Shown here: positions 8,580 through 38,558 of the stretch, piece by piece | How the letters are laid out: the number at the start of each line of letters is the position of its first letter | How positions within the stretch are numbered: position 1 is the first letter of the stretch | Origin: an uncultured Bacteroidota bacterium | GTDB lineage: Bacteria > Bacteroidota > Bacteroidia > Chitinophagales > Chitinophagaceae | Reading direction: 5' to 3' | Assembly (NCBI GenBank): GCA_903877645.1 | Contig: CAIRES010000049.1 | Coordinates: 1 to 40,457, forward strand | DNA: 40,457 nt | Program-made: the position numbers and the translations under genes | The notes under the pieces: generated by a model | What the model saw: the letters and a program-made list of their open reading frames with translations, nothing else | The model's database searches: none | What the model was told of the DNA's origin: nothing

Positions 8580-9326
8580 ATGGCCCGCAAGTATTTCAGC
8601 AATTTTAAGCAATCGAAAAAGGAGGTGATCCAATGGCGCAGCCACGAGGTGACGCGCATAGAGGCATTCAGCGATGCGGTATTTGCCTTTGCGGTAAGCC
8701 TGCTCATTATTTCGCTGGAAGTACCTAAAAACTCAACTGAGCTGCTGGAGAGCCTTCGTGGCTTTATACCGTTTACTTTTTGCTTTGGCTTTATAGCCAT
8801 GATCTGGTACCGGCAATACTGCTTTTTCAGGCGTTATGGTATGCACGATGTGGCCACTATCTTTCTCAACTGCACCCTTGTGCTGGTTGTGCTGTTTTAT
8901 GTATACCCGCTTAAGTTTATGATATCTGCATTGATGATGAAGGAAGCTTTTACAGTAAAGGTTGGCGATACTTTGCAATTGCTCTGTTTCTATACCGGCG
9001 GATTTGCGGCTATCTATTTCTTGTTTGTACTGATGTATATGAATGCCCATGCCAAGCGGGAGGAATTGCATCTTACCGATGTGGAGGCCTTCGAAACCCG
9101 TACACAGATATACCTCAACCTGCTCCTGTCGGCGTATGCCCTTGTGATGATGGCTGTGGGTATCTGTTTGAACAGGATAGCACCGGAAAGCACTTTTGCC
9201 GGCCTCGTCTTATTTTCGTTCATAGGTATACCAATAGGTATCATGATGAGCAAGAGAAAGAAGACATTTAAGCAAAAATTTGGTCAGGTGCCGATGGCAG
9301 AGATCGCTCATAATCCGGAGGGATAA
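8580..9326 (+). CDS. TMEM175 (DUF1211) family cation channel-like membrane protein
   Basis: 248 residues from the ATG at 8580. The hallmark RxxxFSD motif of TMEM175 potassium channels is at residues 26-32 (RIEAFSDAVFAFAVSLL), at the start of TM1. Further hydrophobic segments near residues 60-78, 95-113, 130-152, 178-198 and 205-225 give about six TM helices, the size of bacterial single-repeat TMEM175 proteins that form tetramers. The C-terminus is short and basic (KRKKTFKQKFG). Potassium-selective leak conduction is known for some family members; selectivity here is inferred. A paralogue follows 18 bases downstream. Confidence 0.85.
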   Translation: MARKYFSNFKQSKKEVIQWRSHEVTRIEAFSDAVFAFAVSLLIISLEVPKNSTELLESLRGFIPFTFCFGFIAMIWYRQYCFFRRYGMHDVATIFLNCTLVLVVLFYVYPLKFMISALMMKEAFTVKVGDTLQLLCFYTGGFAAIYFLFVLMYMNAHAKREELHLTDVEAFETRTQIYLNLLLSAYALVMMAVGICLNRIAPESTFAGLVLFSFIGIPIGIMMSKRKKTFKQKFGQVPMAEIAHNPEG

Positions 9327-9344: not shown

Positions 9345-10093
9345 ATGATCAGAAAATATTTAAACAATATCGCCCAATCAAAGAAGGAGAAGATCACGTG
9401 GCGCAGCCATGAAGTGACGAGGATAGAGGCATTCAGTGATGGGGTACTTGCGTTCGGGGTCAGTTTGCTGGTGATCTCGCTGGAAGTACCCAAAGATTCA
9501 AAAGCATTGATGGACTCGCTGGAAGGGCTGATACCGTTTGGGTTCTGTTTTTTTGGTGTTTTCTGGATATGGAAATCGCAATATCGTTTTTTCAGAAGGT
9601 ATGGCCTGCATGATGATGTGACACTGGGGCTCAACGCTGCATTGCTTTTTGCGACGCTGGCCTATCTCTACCCGCTCAAGTTTTTGTTCAATTCGGCTTT
9701 AATGCCGAATGGGTCGTATGTGATACAGTCGGGCGATGAGATAAAAATATTCGTATTGTACATGACAGGTTTTGGATTCATTAACCTGCTTTTTGTCTTT
9801 ATGTATCTAACAGCATTGTACAAGCGCAAAGCGATCAAATTAACAGAAGCGAGGTATTTGAAACGAAAACTACCTTGTGGTTCTTTCTATTTCCTGTCAT
9901 TATTACAATAGCCGTTATTGCCTATATCTATTCTGTTATTTCGATTGATCCCAAATATCTACAGGTGTCTTATTATATTCTTGGTTTGCAGGTAATCCTT
10001 CCACGCTGGTTCAAGCGAAAGAGGGAGCGTCTCTTCAAAAAGAAATTCGGTGACATCCCTGAGGTGGAGATCAATCATAACCAGGAAGGGTAA
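9345..10093 (+). pseudogene. Second TMEM175-family gene with a -1 frameshift
   Basis: The ATG at 9345 opens a protein closely similar to its upstream neighbour (RSHEVTRIEAFSDGVLAFGVSLL; both share an ILNN/SNF...QSKKE-like N-terminus). The frame is correct to LTE (codon 9846-9848) and then shifts; the original frame ends in a stop at 9909-9911. Aligning with the neighbour's LTDVEAFETRT shows that the sequence resumes in another frame as EVFETKT from 9851 and runs to TAA 10091-10093 (GDIPEVEINHNQEG). One base is missing at about 9849-9851. Either the last two TM helices are lost or this is a base-calling error. Without the shift the product would be ~249 residues, the same length as the paralogue. 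Confidence 0.8.
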
Positions 10094-11886: not shown

Positions 11887-11956
11887 TGTTGCAATTATGC
11901 CAAATAGACATCTGTCTTATTTGTGGATTTTCGGAACAGATAGGTGTTATTTATGG

Positions 11957-12069
11957 CCACCACATAGGCACATAGACCACATAGGTGCAGTAATTGAGCT
12001 AATGTGGTCTTATAATTTATGAGTATAGACCACATAGACTATGTGACGTATGTGCCTCCTATGTGGTGG
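11957..12069. repeat. Dispersed ~112-bp repeat with inverted ends, copy 1
   Basis: 113 bases between two convergent genes. The ends are inverted repeats: CCACCACATAGGCACATAG at the left, and a right end that reads the same on the other strand with small gaps (ATGTGCCTCCTATGTGGTGG). Internal blocks ATAGACCACATAG and ACTATGTG add further symmetry. A second copy lies at 22699-22810 in the opposite orientation, with about four of five positions equal by eye. No coding sequence is inside. It looks like a short palindromic intergenic element (REP/MITE-like). Confidence 0.8.
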
Positions 12070-12111
12070 AAAATATCGCGCTATTCACTGTGTGATTTGA
12101 TTGTATAAGTA

Positions 12112-12561
12112 TTAGGCTCCGAACTGGCGCAAATGGTGGTCCATATGCTTGTAGTTGAGTGAGTTCCATTCGCTTTCCGTCATTTTGCCAAAGAAGGGGT
12201 GGGGGTTCTTGGCAAGGTTGGCGGGTGCGGTGGCAGATAAGCGGCTCAGCATAGTAGTGAGCCTTTGCTTTTCCTCTTGAAATTCTTTGGCCCCAATGAT
12301 CACAAAGCTTTTATCTGTTGGCAATCCTTGTTTGAAAGGTTCCTCTGAAACAACACTCTTTTTAGCCATCTTACCAAATATCCTGCCCAGCAATCCTTGC
12401 TTGCCAGCTCCTTCGCCCAGGTTGGCCTCGATGGCTGCGCTGCAATGAGCCATCATTTGTGCCACATCCATTTTGCCCCACTGGCGTTGCGAGTTTGGCG
12501 TCAGTGTATTGATCCTTGTTATCAGCTCGTTCAATACTTCGGGGGTGTGGATGTTCTTCAT
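12112..12561 (-). CDS. DUF1569 (DinB-like) protein
   Basis: 149 residues from the ATG at 12561; an in-frame TTG 24 bases upstream adds a non-conserved tail. The sequence matches DUF1569: LITRINTLTPNSQRQWGKMDVAQMMAHCSAAIEAN at the N-terminus, KMAKKSVVSEEPFKQGLPTDKSFVI in the middle and HPFFGKMTESEWNSLNYKHMDHHLRQFG at the end. The His at MAHC and the two His at DHHLRQF are in the places of the metal ligands of the DinB/YfiT fold. No substrate is known. It has its own -7 box. Confidence 0.85.
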   Translation of the reverse strand: MKNIHTPEVLNELITRINTLTPNSQRQWGKMDVAQMMAHCSAAIEANLGEGAGKQGLLGRIFGKMAKKSVVSEEPFKQGLPTDKSFVIIGAKEFQEEKQRLTTMLSRLSATAPANLAKNPHPFFGKMTESEWNSLNYKHMDHHLRQFGA

Positions 12562-12582
12562 GTCATTATCGGTTGAGAGTGG

Positions 12583-12590
12583 CAAATATA
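12583..12590 (-). promoter_or_regulatory. -7 box for the DUF1569 gene (TATATTTG)
   Basis: On the minus strand TATATTTG matches TANNTTTG perfectly and lies 21 bases before the ATG at 12561. A TTT, one base off the TTG -33 box, is found 18 bases further upstream. Confidence 0.5.
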
Positions 12591-14228: not shown

Positions 14229-14366
14229 GTAGGTGTCATGGTGAGCCTCGTCGAACCATGGCGCCGTTGAGTATTATTAGATATTGAGGTTTGGAAGTGT
14301 AATATATTACGTATTACCTGTTCAGCAACGGTATCATGGTTCGACGAGGCTCACCATGACACCTAC
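14229..14366. repeat. Long intergenic inverted repeat (32-bp perfect arms)
   Basis: Arms at 14229-14260 and 14335-14366 are perfect reverse complements over 32 bases (core GGTGAGCCTCGTCGAACC). A loop of 74 bases separates them, and a further 6-bp pair inside (14264-14269 with 14326-14331) extends the stem. It lies between the convergent FMN reductase gene and mutS2 and contains no ORF. It resembles the dispersed palindromic repeats with a GAGC..GTCGAACC core seen in many environmental bacteria, and could act as a bidirectional terminator. Confidence 0.85.
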
Positions 14367-22539: not shown

Positions 22540-22698
22540 TATCCGGGAGCGGTTCTGATCCGCTCATTATGGCCAGCCCTGTCAAAATCCTCCACCGCTT
22601 GGAGGCTGGGAATTGTCACATCAAAAGGCGGCATATTATACCAATTATAAGTCATCGAAATCATGCACGAGATTGGCAGATTATTCGCGCGAGATTTG
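22540..22698. other. Non-coding stretch with two hairpins
   Basis: Between the small membrane protein gene and the second copy of the 112-bp repeat. Two short hairpins are visible: GAGCGG (22547-22552) with CCGCTC (22560-22565), and CTCC/GGAG pairs near 22589-22605. A minus-strand frame of 64 codons (22530-22724) covers it but has no coding character and enters the repeat. No gene is supported. Confidence 0.4.
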
Positions 22699-22810
22699 CT
22701 ACCACATAGGCACATAGAGCACATAGTCTATGTGGTCTGCACTCATATGTTTTAAGATCACATAGGCAGACTTACTCCCACCTATGTGGTCTATGTGCCA
22801 ATGTGGTGGC
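22699..22810. repeat. Dispersed ~112-bp repeat with inverted ends, copy 2 (inverted)
   Basis: Read on the minus strand it begins CCACCACATTGGCACATAG and follows copy 1 (11957-12069) almost base for base: the ACCACATAGG block, the AT-rich centre with ATGAGT, then AGACCACATAGACTATGTG and a final ATGTGCC..TATGTGGT. Both copies are intergenic and nearly equal in length. Confidence 0.8.
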
Positions 22811-22884
22811 CTTGAATAGCACAAGATCATACCTGAAACTTGCACGACGAATAAGTGTCTAACTAGTATAGTCCGATCGGAATA

Positions 22885-23523
22885 TTACTCTATATACTGT
22901 TTCAGGCTATCTATTGCTACTTCCCCTGAAAATATCCTGATCAGTTTCCTGTCGGCATCATAGATATTGATCTGTGGCAATGCCTGGTACAAAAAAGCTT
23001 TATCGATGAAGCCTGAACTATCTGTGCCTACTGTAATGGTAGGGTATTCAGCGGTATGAAAGTTTTTTACAAAGTTCGGTATGTATTGCCGCATCTGTGG
23101 TGTGGATATCAGTATCAATTTCGACTTGGAGAAATACGAGATATTTTTTTCCATCCGTTCTGTTTGGTCTTCGCAGTGCGAGCAGGTGGGGTTGAACATC
23201 ATCACAAAAAGGTTATTGCCATCATTGATATCTTTGTCAGTGATCTCCACTTTGCTTTTGTCTTGTATTACTTCTTTGTTGTGTTTCTTGTTTTTTTTGT
23301 GGGCTATGCTGTCTTTGATCACCTGTTCTGTGTTTGCAATATAGCTGCTGGTATCATAGTATGGCATCAGCCGCATAGGTGGCATAGGAGCGCCCGTTTT
23401 TTTATAGTCAAATATAACTTCGTCCTTCTTATCTATTACTTTTAAGGATGCCGTATTTTTTTGCTGTGCAAGGGCAGGAATAGCCAATGCAAGTAATGCC
23501 GGTAAAAATAATCTGCTTAACAT
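22885..23523 (-). CDS. Secreted thioredoxin-fold protein, copy A of a tandem pair
   Basis: 212 residues with signal peptide MLSRLFLPALLALAIPALAQ. A conserved linker (GAPMPPMRLMPYYDTSSY; KDSIAHKKNKKH) leads to a thioredoxin-like domain: strand NLFVMMFNPTCSHC with the redox CxxC as C-S-H-C, FSKSKLILIST, and the cis-Pro loop ALPQINIYDADRKL. This fits a periplasmic thiol-disulfide or redoxin-like protein; the substrate is unknown. The second copy upstream (23589-24227) has the same length and ~60% identity by eye. The upstream ~45 bases are also duplicated (see findings). Confidence 0.85.
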   Translation of the reverse strand: MLSRLFLPALLALAIPALAQQKNTASLKVIDKKDEVIFDYKKTGAPMPPMRLMPYYDTSSYIANTEQVIKDSIAHKKNKKHNKEVIQDKSKVEITDKDINDGNNLFVMMFNPTCSHCEDQTERMEKNISYFSKSKLILISTPQMRQYIPNFVKNFHTAEYPTITVGTDSSGFIDKAFLYQALPQINIYDADRKLIRIFSGEVAIDSLKQYIE

Positions 23524-23588
23524 GCAGCTAATTTAGGAAATTAAGTGAAAAAATGGTCATAAAATTTGTCAACGTTGCTTATCCTCTA

Positions 23589-24227
23589 CTACTGTATGTA
23601 TTCTTTCAGGCTATCTATTTCCACATCGCCTGTAAATGTTTTGATCAGTTTCCTGTCGGCATTATAAATATTGATCTGCGGGAGGGCCTGAAATAAAAAT
23701 ACTTTATCGCTGAAATTAGAACTGTCTGATCCTACTATAATACTCGGATATTCGGCGGTATGGAAAGCCTTTATAAAGCCCGGCAGGTATTCCCGCATGT
23801 GGGTTGTGGAAAGCAGCAATAATTTAGATCTATTGAAATATGCGATATTTTTTTCAAAAAGCATTGTTTCATCTTCGCAGTGAGAGCAGAGCGGGTTAAA
23901 GGTCATTACTAAGAGGTTGGCACCATTATTTACATCTGCATTGGTAACAGCCTTTTTGCCCGTGTCTTGTATTACGTTCCTGTCCCTCTTCTTAATTTTT
24001 TTGTGGGCAATGCTGTCCTTTATGGCCATCTCTGTATTGGGTATGGCCATGTTGCCGGTATCGTAATAAGGTATGAGCCGCAGGGGGGGCATTGGCGCTC
24101 CCGGTTGGGTATATTCTATTTGAGTATCCTTCTTCTTTTCTGTAGCTTTGGATAGCGGGGTCTTTGTTTGCGAGAACGCATTTAAAGAACCGGTGAGCAA
24201 CGAGAACAGTAACAGTTTTCTTAACAT
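23589..24227 (-). CDS. Secreted thioredoxin-fold protein, copy B of a tandem pair
   Basis: 212 residues, signal peptide MLRKLLLFSLLTGSLNAFSQ. It has the same layout as copy A: GAPMPPLRLIPYYDTG, KDSIAHKKIKKRDRN, NLLVMTFNPLCSHCEDE with the C-S-H-C redox pair, and ALPQINIYNADRKLIKTF with the cis-Pro. It is divergent from rarA, with only 44 bases between the two starts, so both genes must share a very short promoter region. Copy A lies 65 bases downstream on the same strand. Confidence 0.85.
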   Translation of the reverse strand: MLRKLLLFSLLTGSLNAFSQTKTPLSKATEKKKDTQIEYTQPGAPMPPLRLIPYYDTGNMAIPNTEMAIKDSIAHKKIKKRDRNVIQDTGKKAVTNADVNNGANLLVMTFNPLCSHCEDETMLFEKNIAYFNRSKLLLLSTTHMREYLPGFIKAFHTAEYPSIIVGSDSSNFSDKVFLFQALPQINIYNADRKLIKTFTGDVEIDSLKEYIQ

Positions 24228-37514: not shown

Positions 37515-37545
37515 TAATTAGCGGATGTGTGATTAGCTAATTTGA

Positions 37546-37669
37546 TGATTAGCTGATTAGCTGATTGTGCAGGCGATTAAAATAAAGAGTAAAAATTAAT
37601 GGGGATTTAGTTAATTAGCAGTCTTTTTCTGACATCAGCTAATTACCACATTAGCTAATCAGCTAATCA
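37546..37669. repeat. Intergenic TTAGCTGA repeat with inverted arms
   Basis: TGATTAGCTGATTAGCT at 37546-37562 is a perfect 17-base inverted match to 37653-37669. The neighbouring sequence holds more partial units (GATTAGCTAA at 37531, ATCAGCTAATT at 37634). The 160-base gap between the dehydrogenase and DUF3667 genes consists mostly of this material and has no ORF. Confidence 0.75.
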
Positions 37670-37676
37670 AGAAAAT

Positions 37677-38558
37677 ATGTCGCACAACCACGAACCGATA
37701 ATTTGCCCCAATTGCGGCTATCATGCCACAGATAACTACTGTGCGCAGTGCGGGCAGGAAACGCATCTGCACAACGATACCTTTTGGGGCCTCATCATGC
37801 ATTTTATTGGCCATTACTTTCATTACGACTCCAAGTTCTGGAAAACAATGAAGGCATTGTGGTTCAGTCCCGGCAAGCTCACTATCGCGTATTGGGAAAA
37901 GAAACGCATGCGTTATATAGCACCCGTGTCGTTGTACATTTTTATCAGCGTAACGTTCTTCCTCGTCAATACTATACTTCCGGCGCATTACTTCCATCAT
38001 CAGTCATCTGGTAGTGCACAAACAGATAGTATTGTAAGATCTGTTCGGCTGAAGCTTGATAAATTAGATGACAACACTGCAGGGTTGTCTGCCGAGGAAA
38101 GAATAAAGGTAAATGCTCAGGATAGTCTTGTGAAGAAAAAATTAGCAAAAATCAGTGAGCACAAAAGTGAAATTAATGAGCAGATGAAGCACATGCTGCC
38201 CAAAGTATTTTTCTTTATGATACCCCTGATGGGTTTTATACTGTTATTGCTGTTTGCGAGGAGGAAAGGTACCGGATACGTTAACCATATTATTTTTGCA
38301 CTACACTACCATACCTTTTGGTTCTCTCTGATGCTGGTGTATACGTTGTATCGATTTGACTTAGGGCGAACATATTTGTTGCTTCTAACCATGCTTATTT
38401 CAGTCGTTTACTTCATTATTGCCCTTCGCAACACATATAAAGTAAGCTGGGCTAGGTCAATATCCTATTCTGTCATAACGGCTATTGTGTACGCGCTATT
38501 CTTATTTATCGCGATACTGGCAGCGAGCGCCCTGATAGGAATGCAATACCTCTTTTAG
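37677..38558 (+). CDS. DUF3667 membrane protein with zinc ribbon
   Basis: 293 residues. The N-terminal zinc ribbon is C-P-N-C-G (10-14) and C-A-Q-C-G (22-26). The following block (GLIMHFIGHYFHYDSKFWKTMKALWFSPGKLTIAYWEKKRMRYIAPVSLYIFISV) is the DUF3667 signature. One TM helix is near 85-100, a charged soluble loop at about 110-175, and four TM helices come after that. The function is unknown. The ATG follows the inverted repeat by only 7 bases. It is convergent with ubiE, with 2 bases between the stop codons. Confidence 0.9.
   Translation: MSHNHEPIICPNCGYHATDNYCAQCGQETHLHNDTFWGLIMHFIGHYFHYDSKFWKTMKALWFSPGKLTIAYWEKKRMRYIAPVSLYIFISVTFFLVNTILPAHYFHHQSSGSAQTDSIVRSVRLKLDKLDDNTAGLSAEERIKVNAQDSLVKKKLAKISEHKSEINEQMKHMLPKVFFFMIPLMGFILLLLFARRKGTGYVNHIIFALHYHTFWFSLMLVYTLYRFDLGRTYLLLLTMLISVVYFIIALRNTYKVSWARSISYSVITAIVYALFLFIAILAASALIGMQYLF

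What the first reader, a model, noticed from the sequence alone, without database searches (positions are those of the whole stretch)
11957..12069. ~112-bp palindromic element in two copies of opposite orientation (copy 1)
Seen: the copy at 11957-12069 and the minus strand of 22699-22810 line up over their whole length with matched ends (CCACCACAT.GGCACATAG). Each copy also has inverted ends and can fold into a long branched hairpin. Both are intergenic. I do not know a named element with this sequence; it may be a MITE moved by an unseen transposase, or a REP-like element.
Basis: seen in the sequence. Interest (0 to 1): 0.7.

Follow-up and report, generated by a model that had tools for sequence, protein, structure and literature searches.

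The report
Miniature transposon with a palindromic core
The repeated palindrome is the centre of a roughly 190-230-base "hitchhiker" transposon that carries no gene and is probably moved by another element's transposase, and its short repeated CACATAG words also turn up without that transposon in distantly related bacteria, where their job is unknown.

Summary
In detail: 11957-12069 and the minus strand of 22699-22810 are two of at least 53 dispersed copies, partial ones included, in this genome. Conserved tails end in terminal inverted repeats (TACCRATTAGRCAYC) flanked by a 3-bp TNA duplication; window copy 1 is TTA|11898-12111|TTA. One copy is missing, base for base, from a same-genus genome, and copy 1's site is empty in four others. 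So it is a MITE. Eight contig ends of this genome hold an insertion sequence with the same ends and target; a complete relative encodes a DDE_3 (IS630-type) transposase. The REP/RAYT rival fails: none of 35 Y1-transposase loci examined had clustered heptamers within 1.5 kb. The unusual part is the core, with arms of three CACATAG heptamers at 8- and 9-bp spacing. That arm occurs in 18 of 395 class-level genomes, own included, control 0; elsewhere without the MITE tails. Linker bases do not covary between arms overall, so the heptamers look conserved as sequence, perhaps protein-binding sites. That function is inferred.

The parts
11898..12111 (+). MITE copy 1, whole element (214 bp)
   Evidence: ends read from the alignment of genomic copies; the right end is decayed and was placed by eye with the TTA in view; site empty in G002, G014, G017 and G019
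11895..11897 (.). left target-site duplication TTA of copy 1
   Evidence: identical TTA on both sides
12112..12114 (.). right target-site duplication TTA of copy 1; on the minus strand it is the TAA stop codon of ORF 12112-12585
11898..11912 (+). left terminal inverted repeat TGCCAAATAGACATC
   Evidence: 11 of 13 positions of TACCRATTAGRCA
12099..12111 (-). right terminal inverted repeat, decayed (TACTTATACAATC)
   Evidence: read; not significant on its own (outer-tail tests for this copy p=0.06 left, 0.37 right)
11957..12069 (+). palindromic core of copy 1 (the reported finding)
11961..11984 (+). left arm: three CACATAG heptamers at 11961, 11969 and 11978 (spacing 8 and 9)
12031..12065 (+). 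inner CACATAG (12031) and right-arm CTATGTG heptamers (12039, 12059; the one between them is GTATGTG in this copy)
22639..22868 (-). MITE copy 2, whole element (230 bp)
   Evidence: both terminal inverted repeats readable; flanks CTA/TAA, so no identical duplication
22699..22810 (-). palindromic core of copy 2

Best explanation
The palindrome is the central part of a non-autonomous, gene-less transposon (MITE). Full copies are about 193-233 bp: terminal inverted repeat, tail, roughly 112-bp palindromic core, tail, terminal inverted repeat. Shown: it is repeated at 53 or more loci; its ends match those of an insertion sequence present at eight contig ends of the same genome; both sit in TNA targets; most copies whose ends I could read have identical 3-bp TNA flanks; sites are empty in relatives. 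Inferred: a DDE transposase of IS630 type (DDE_3), encoded by that insertion sequence or a relative, binds the ends, moves the element and leaves the 3-bp duplication. Inferred, less sure: the core is not needed for that (other MITEs with the same ends lack it) but is an array of sequence-specific binding sites, CACATAG/CTATGTG words with arms at 8- and 9-bp spacing, taken up from a repeat family found across the class.
For: Copies: 40 places plus 13 more. Tails: at least one of four tail segments significant (p<=0.02) in 40 of 50 copies, an outer tail in 23 of 50, all four in 8 of 50. Ends: TACCRATTAGRCA scores >=10 of 13 at both ends in 5 of 53 copies scored (own and G029), about 0.06 expected from the null. 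Target duplication: of 11 copies picked by eye for readable ends (10 own, 1 from G029), 6 have identical TNA flanks as scripted and a 7th (L050) after a one-base shift; L004 (window copy 2) has both ends but CTA/TAA; L009, L012 and L021 lack a clear end. Empty site: filled AAAG-TGA-[228]-TGA-TTGC, empty AAAG-TGA-CTGC in G029; copy 1 site continuous in G002, G014, G017 and G019. Partner: 8 of 8 insertion-sequence ends begin TACCAATTAGACATTA and are preceded by TWA. Named genomes: 36 of 38 ends followed by TNA, 7 of 8 short MITEs with identical flanks. L116: complete 1116-bp element, TTA/TTA, with DDE_3 E=7.5e-24.
Against: The insertion sequence's interior is not assembled in this genome: PF13358 finds nothing in the own genome, and only one contig end reads into the C-terminal coding part, with an in-frame stop. 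So an intact transposase here is not shown. Window copy 2 has no identical duplication, and copy 1's right end is too decayed to be recognised without its TTA. 27 of 50 copies show no significant outer tail, so they are old or truncated, or core plus inner tails can move without the outer ends. A 3-bp TNA duplication is unlike the TA duplication usual for IS630/Tc1/mariner. The named-genome ends are not independent: 14 of 37 stretches come from one MAG (CAIRTW) and 6 from another (CANFKC), and 6 of the 8 short MITEs are one 159-bp family of the latter. Heptamer conservation is inflated because copies were found by their heptamers; decayed copies exist (L279-L281). Transposition in trans was not tested.
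Confidence: 0.86

Rival explanations
1. The palindrome itself is the mobile unit of a class-wide family moved by an unidentified enzyme; in this lineage a copy landed inside an IS630-type MITE and was then amplified with it.
For: The triple-heptamer arm occurs in 18 of 395 class-level genomes (own included), 13 of 197 genera, control 0. Elsewhere the arms lack the MITE tails: of 66 arm ends, 3 match the left and 1 the right tail at p<=0.02, 1.3 expected each, and one reaches 10 of 13 of the terminal repeat. TGA directly precedes ACCACATAG at 30 of 65 arm ends, 1.2 expected, like a fixed junction. In this genome inner tails (23 and 31 of 50) are found more often than outer ones (14 and 18).
Against: No shared target duplication was evident at the class-wide copies by eye. 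No autonomous version or enzyme was found. The one base-resolved empty site in this genus removes the whole 228-bp unit.
Confidence: 0.35
2. REP/REPIN-type element processed by a RAYT (TnpA_REP), for example the Bacteroidetes subclass 2.6, whose genes are reported to be flanked by atypical secondary structures.
For: High copy, intergenic, strong fold. The own genome has a 190-aa Y1 gene with NHVH and YIHNNP, as described for subclass 2.6 (description from passages of PMC6006769).
Against: None of 5 own Y1 loci has a CACATAG heptamer within 1.5 kb. Clustered arms are absent at all 32 Y1 loci scored (2 own plus 30 of the 39 matches from 12 motif-bearing genomes; some flanks cut by contig ends). 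G631 and G719 carry the motif but have no PF01797 match. One own Y1 gene is flanked by other palindromes, CCCCTTCGGGG. The own copies have target duplications, unlike REPs (recalled).
Confidence: 0.05
3. The palindrome is kept as an RNA structure (terminator, attenuator or RNase III site) at gene 3' ends.
For: Strong fold; 12 of 29 copies lie between convergent ORFs, against 3 of 25 other ORF pairs in the same loci, by a simple ORF heuristic.
Against: Variable linker bases between heptamers do not covary between arms overall: 98 of 140 identical against 97.0 +/- 2.8 shuffled in this genome, 36 of 85 against 32.8 +/- 4.0 elsewhere, though one linker column elsewhere does exceed the shuffles, 11 of 17 against 7.0 +/- 1.9. 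No Rfam match at the gathering thresholds.
Confidence: 0.12
4. Two-copy local duplication.
For: Two copies in the window.
Against: At least 53 loci genome-wide, full copies in G029 and arms in G001.
Confidence: 0.01

Closest known systems
RUP (repeat unit of pneumococcus), a MITE attributed to IS630-Spn1 (PMC2229807, passages read)
   Same: Small gene-less intergenic repeat (108 copies reported); terminal inverted repeats match an IS630-type insertion sequence in the same genome; mobilisation in trans inferred from that match
   Different: Duplication here is TNA (3 bp), target there contains TA; about twice the size; carries an internal heptamer palindrome that also exists outside the MITE; different phylum
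IS630/Tc1/mariner family insertion sequences
   Same: The partner relative L116 has an HTH-like ORF (below Pfam's cut-off) and a DDE_3 ORF in two frames, and terminal inverted repeats
   Different: TNA duplication in place of the TA target stated for mariner/Tc1 (start of the abstract of PMC5481204 as listed)
REP/REPIN with RAYT, TnpA_REP subclass 2.6 (PMC6006769, passages read)
   Same: Intergenic, high-copy, hairpin-forming, Bacteroidota
   Different: Not found beside Y1 genes; has target duplications and terminal inverted repeats; linkers between heptamers not paired more than by chance overall
Correia/NEMIS elements (PMC2229807, passages)
   Same: Size range, terminal inverted repeats, target duplications, base-paired transcripts predicted
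   Different: Different organisms; no heptamer array mentioned in the passages read; I did not compare the sequences

Membership tests
MITE (non-autonomous DNA transposon) | Many dispersed copies, short, no gene | tested here: met
   at least 53 loci incl. partial copies; full copies 193-233 bp
MITE (non-autonomous DNA transposon) | Terminal inverted repeats | tested here: met
   TACCRATTAGRCA >=10 of 13 at both ends in 5 of 53 copies scored, about 0.06 expected; decayed or absent in many others
MITE (non-autonomous DNA transposon) | Target-site duplication | tested here: met
   of 11 copies picked by eye, 6 as scripted, 7 with a one-base shift; 1 clear mismatch (window copy 2), 3 without a clear end
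MITE (non-autonomous DNA transposon) | Empty sites in relatives | tested here: met
   of 5 own joined sites searched: L011 empty in G029, base-resolved; L001 (window copy 1) empty in four genomes, not base-resolved; the other three not resolved
MITE (non-autonomous DNA transposon) | Autonomous element with the same ends in the genome | tested here: inconclusive
   Ends at 8 contig ends; interior not assembled
IS630/Tc1/mariner element as mobiliser | DDE_3-type transposase | tested here: met
   in the relative L116 (E=7.5e-24); in the own genome only a 30-aa C-terminal fragment resembling it
IS630/Tc1/mariner element as mobiliser | TA dinucleotide target duplication | tested here: not met
   TNA, 3 bp; so I say IS630-type transposase, not a canonical IS630 MITE
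REP/REPIN of a RAYT | Copies flank the RAYT gene | tested here: not met
   0 of 5 own loci; 0 of 32 loci scored (two own loci are in both)
REP/REPIN of a RAYT | Cleavage by the RAYT protein | not testable with these tools
   biochemical

The most novel reading that the evidence does not exclude
The CACATAG triple-heptamer palindrome is an undescribed repeat family spread over this class of Bacteroidota: a protein-binding array or the ends of an unidentified mobile system, with junction TGA|ACCACATAG-N-CACATAG-NN-CACATAG, that was captured by an IS630-type MITE in this genus and amplified to more than 50 copies.
Probability: 0.5. Interest if true: 0.7.

Novelty: new variant of a known kind. Interest (0 to 1): 0.5.

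Why it matters
It ties an anonymous palindrome to a specific class of transposase and target, so its mobility can be tested directly. It also exposes a heptamer array that recurs in 13 of 197 genera sampled in one class, with fixed arm spacing and no overall arm-to-arm covariation. If the array binds a protein, this is a genome-wide set of ready-made sites that a transposon is spreading; if it forms the ends of its own mobile system, that system has not been identified. The paper searches made here listed no paper that I recognised as describing it, and the main text of the REP survey PMC12306157 does not contain CACATAG; sequences in figures or supplements, and papers outside the library, would be missed.

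Tried and rejected
Local duplication: rejected by copy number. RAYT mobilisation: rejected as above; caveats are that copy L028 lies about 1.6 kb from one own Y1 gene, just outside the flank read, that 9 of the 39 Y1 matches were not read, and that some flanks were cut by contig ends. IS5-type mobiliser, suggested by the TNA target (recalled): dropped once L116 showed DDE_3. The idea that class-wide palindromes sit inside larger inverted repeats (seemed so by eye at L154 and L155): none of 20 elements reached z>4, but the test is weak, since 0 of 8 own copies did either. The idea that core-less MITEs with the same ends exist in this genome: of the 100 places (control 44) I read 13 doubtful ones (L094, L096, L097; L268-L277); none shows an element. 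Phage and plasmid collections: no match; IMG/VR gave 3 stretches. Rfam at gathering thresholds: only a tRNA in the window. Of the 9 joined sites, 4 are class-wide palindromes of G504: the L222 site is filled in G625 and aligned without the arms in G536, but the junction there is too diverged to define the unit; for the other three I drew no conclusion.

Full report
OBSERVATION. The window holds two copies of a palindromic sequence, 11957-12069 (+) and 22699-22810 (-), each between convergent ORFs. All four strands fold well (z -5.6 to -7.8, 0 of 200 shuffles as good in each). In the own genome (3.84 Mb, 88 contigs) the 113-bp query matches 40 distinct places at E<=0.01 (my count). The arm CCACATAGGCACATAG with up to 3 mismatches gives 126 places against 33 for the reversed pattern; the listing is cut, and what it shows adds 13 loci, some of them half or decayed copies (read). 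The exact pair pattern gives 66 places against 0.

TRUE BOUNDARIES. Aligning 38 copies and reading the flanks of 28 showed conserved tails: GTGTTATTCAAGG on one side and AAAATCTCGCGC on the other, then outer tails that end in TACCAATTAGACACC and, reverse-complemented, TACCGATTAGRCATC. Among 50 copies, inner tails are significant (p<=0.02) on the left in 23 and on the right in 31, outer tails in 14 and 18; 10 show none. Some coordinates in that test were set by hand and may understate the counts. Window copy 1 runs 11898-12111 with TTA on both sides; copy 2 runs 22639-22868 with CTA and TAA in element orientation. Copy 1's right end is decayed and was placed with the TTA in view. Its right TTA is the stop codon of the minus-strand ORF 12112-12585.

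MOBILITY. Eleven copies (ten own, one G029) were picked by eye for readable ends: six have identical TNA flanks, a seventh after a one-base shift, one (window copy 2) does not, three lack a clear end. The L011 site is empty in the same-genus genome G029: AAAG-TGA-CTGC against AAAG-TGA-[228 bp]-TGA-TTGC. The copy 1 site is continuous across the join in G002, G014, G017 and G019 at 67-76% identity, so empty there but not base-resolved; in other genomes the listed matches cover one side only. The full-length query finds the family in 3 of 35 same-genus genomes (own, G029, G001); G001 holds arms in a different arrangement. Of 29 own copies with gene context, 12 are between convergent ORFs, 13 tandem, 4 divergent, 0 inside an ORF by a simple heuristic; other ORF pairs in the same loci: 3, 17, 5.

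PARTNER. TACCAATTAGACATTA recurs at eight contig ends, each preceded by TWA; a 198-bp stretch matches eight places, all at contig ends, so the interior looks like a repeat that the assembly could not resolve. One end reads ELNPAEKLWRYFKDRLANEVFKTLDDLSLR and then a stop. PF13358 in the own genome: no match. The terminal repeat TACCAATTAGACATTAAA scanned over named genomes gives 37 stretches, 36 of them titled as Bacteroidota, several as Chitinophagaceae or genera placed there (Terrimonas, Ferruginibacter); 14 are from one MAG and 6 from another, so they are not independent. Of 38 ends, 36 are followed by TNA; the two exceptions (L113, L136) may be chance matches. Eight are 137-159-bp MITEs, 7 with identical flanks, none with the heptamer; six of the eight are one family in one MAG. 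L116 holds a complete 1116-bp element, TTA on both sides, with an HTH-like ORF (below Pfam's cut-off) and a DDE_3 ORF (E=7.5e-24).

THE CORE. In this genome the core is C1 C2 C3 R4 C5 R6 R7 R8 (C=CACATAG, R=CTATGTG), outer arms at spacing 8 and 9. The arm CTATGTGNNCTATGTGNCTATGTGG with up to one mismatch is in 18 of 395 class-level genomes (own included), 13 of 197 genera, reversed-pattern control 0 in the rows listed. Loci read from the 17 other genomes show the same arms, alone or in pairs, with paired arms spanning 56 to about 300 bp. They lack the MITE tails: of 66 arm ends, 3 match the left tail and 1 the right at p<=0.02, 1.3 expected each, and the best terminal-repeat score is 10 of 13, once. 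Comparing the two arms of each element, linker bases are overall no more alike than in shuffles: 98 of 140 against 97.0 +/- 2.8 (28 own elements), 36 of 85 against 32.8 +/- 4.0 (17 others, one of them on a viral contig, some orthologous to each other). One linker column in the others does exceed the shuffles (11 of 17 against 7.0 +/- 1.9), which speaks against my reading. So the words are kept while pairing outside them mostly is not, which favours binding sites over a stem. The elements were chosen by their words, so the conservation itself is biased.

RAYT TEST. Five Y1 genes in the own genome have no CACATAG within 1.5 kb; L034, L035 and 30 of 39 Y1 matches from 12 motif-bearing genomes show no clustered arms; G631 and G719 have no Y1 match. 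Subclass 2.6 TnpA_REP genes of Bacteroidetes are reported to be flanked by atypical structures (PMC6006769, passages), so this rival was serious.

NOVELTY. A gene-less element sharing ends with an IS630-type insertion sequence is a known kind (RUP, PMC2229807, passages). Apparently new here: the 3-bp TNA duplication with a DDE_3 transposase, and an internal heptamer palindrome that exists on its own across the class. Passages were read of PMC6006769, PMC3733652, PMC12306157 and PMC2229807; other papers were seen only as search listings.

Noticed in passing
L020, L029, L038 (own genome): The core is inverted relative to both inner tails in 3 of the 19 copies in which both inner tails are significant, as expected from recombination between the arms or cruciform resolution.
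   Followed up: partly
L060, L063, L072 (G029); L046, L050 (own): The fifth heptamer is replaced or interrupted by CCCGATAGCTATCGGG or a decayed form (in L046 the match is partial), possibly another tiny mobile palindrome.
   Followed up: no
class-wide loci among L145-L227: TGA directly precedes ACCACATAG at 30 of 65 distinct arm ends, 1.2 expected; TTT or AAA precedes 15. The two ends of one element often differ.
   Followed up: partly
L206 near 4475 and L207 near 3000 (IMG/VR contigs): A single arm without partner fills the gap between a stop codon TGA, which its usual junction overlaps, and the next ATG in a phage-like gene cluster.
   Followed up: no
L211, L214, L216 (G724): The 12-mer GTGCTATTCAAG beside class-wide arms equals the inner left tail of some of this genome's MITE copies and may underlie two of the three left-tail hits; chance or common origin is open.
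   Followed up: partly
window 14229-14366: 41-nt inverted repeat (93%) with TCATGGTTCGACGAGGCTCACCA; the same words lie inside an enlarged core in L054: another repeat family.
   Followed up: no
window 37530-37677: Inverted repeats built on GATTAGCTAAT-like words.
   Followed up: no
L094 (G000:C1:8000-11500): An IS200-like gene is flanked by CCCCTTCGGGG-type palindromes.
   Followed up: partly
window 22883-23182 and 23587-23886; 8580-8786 and 9345-9551: Two tandem duplications overlapping ORFs (75% and 71%).
   Followed up: no
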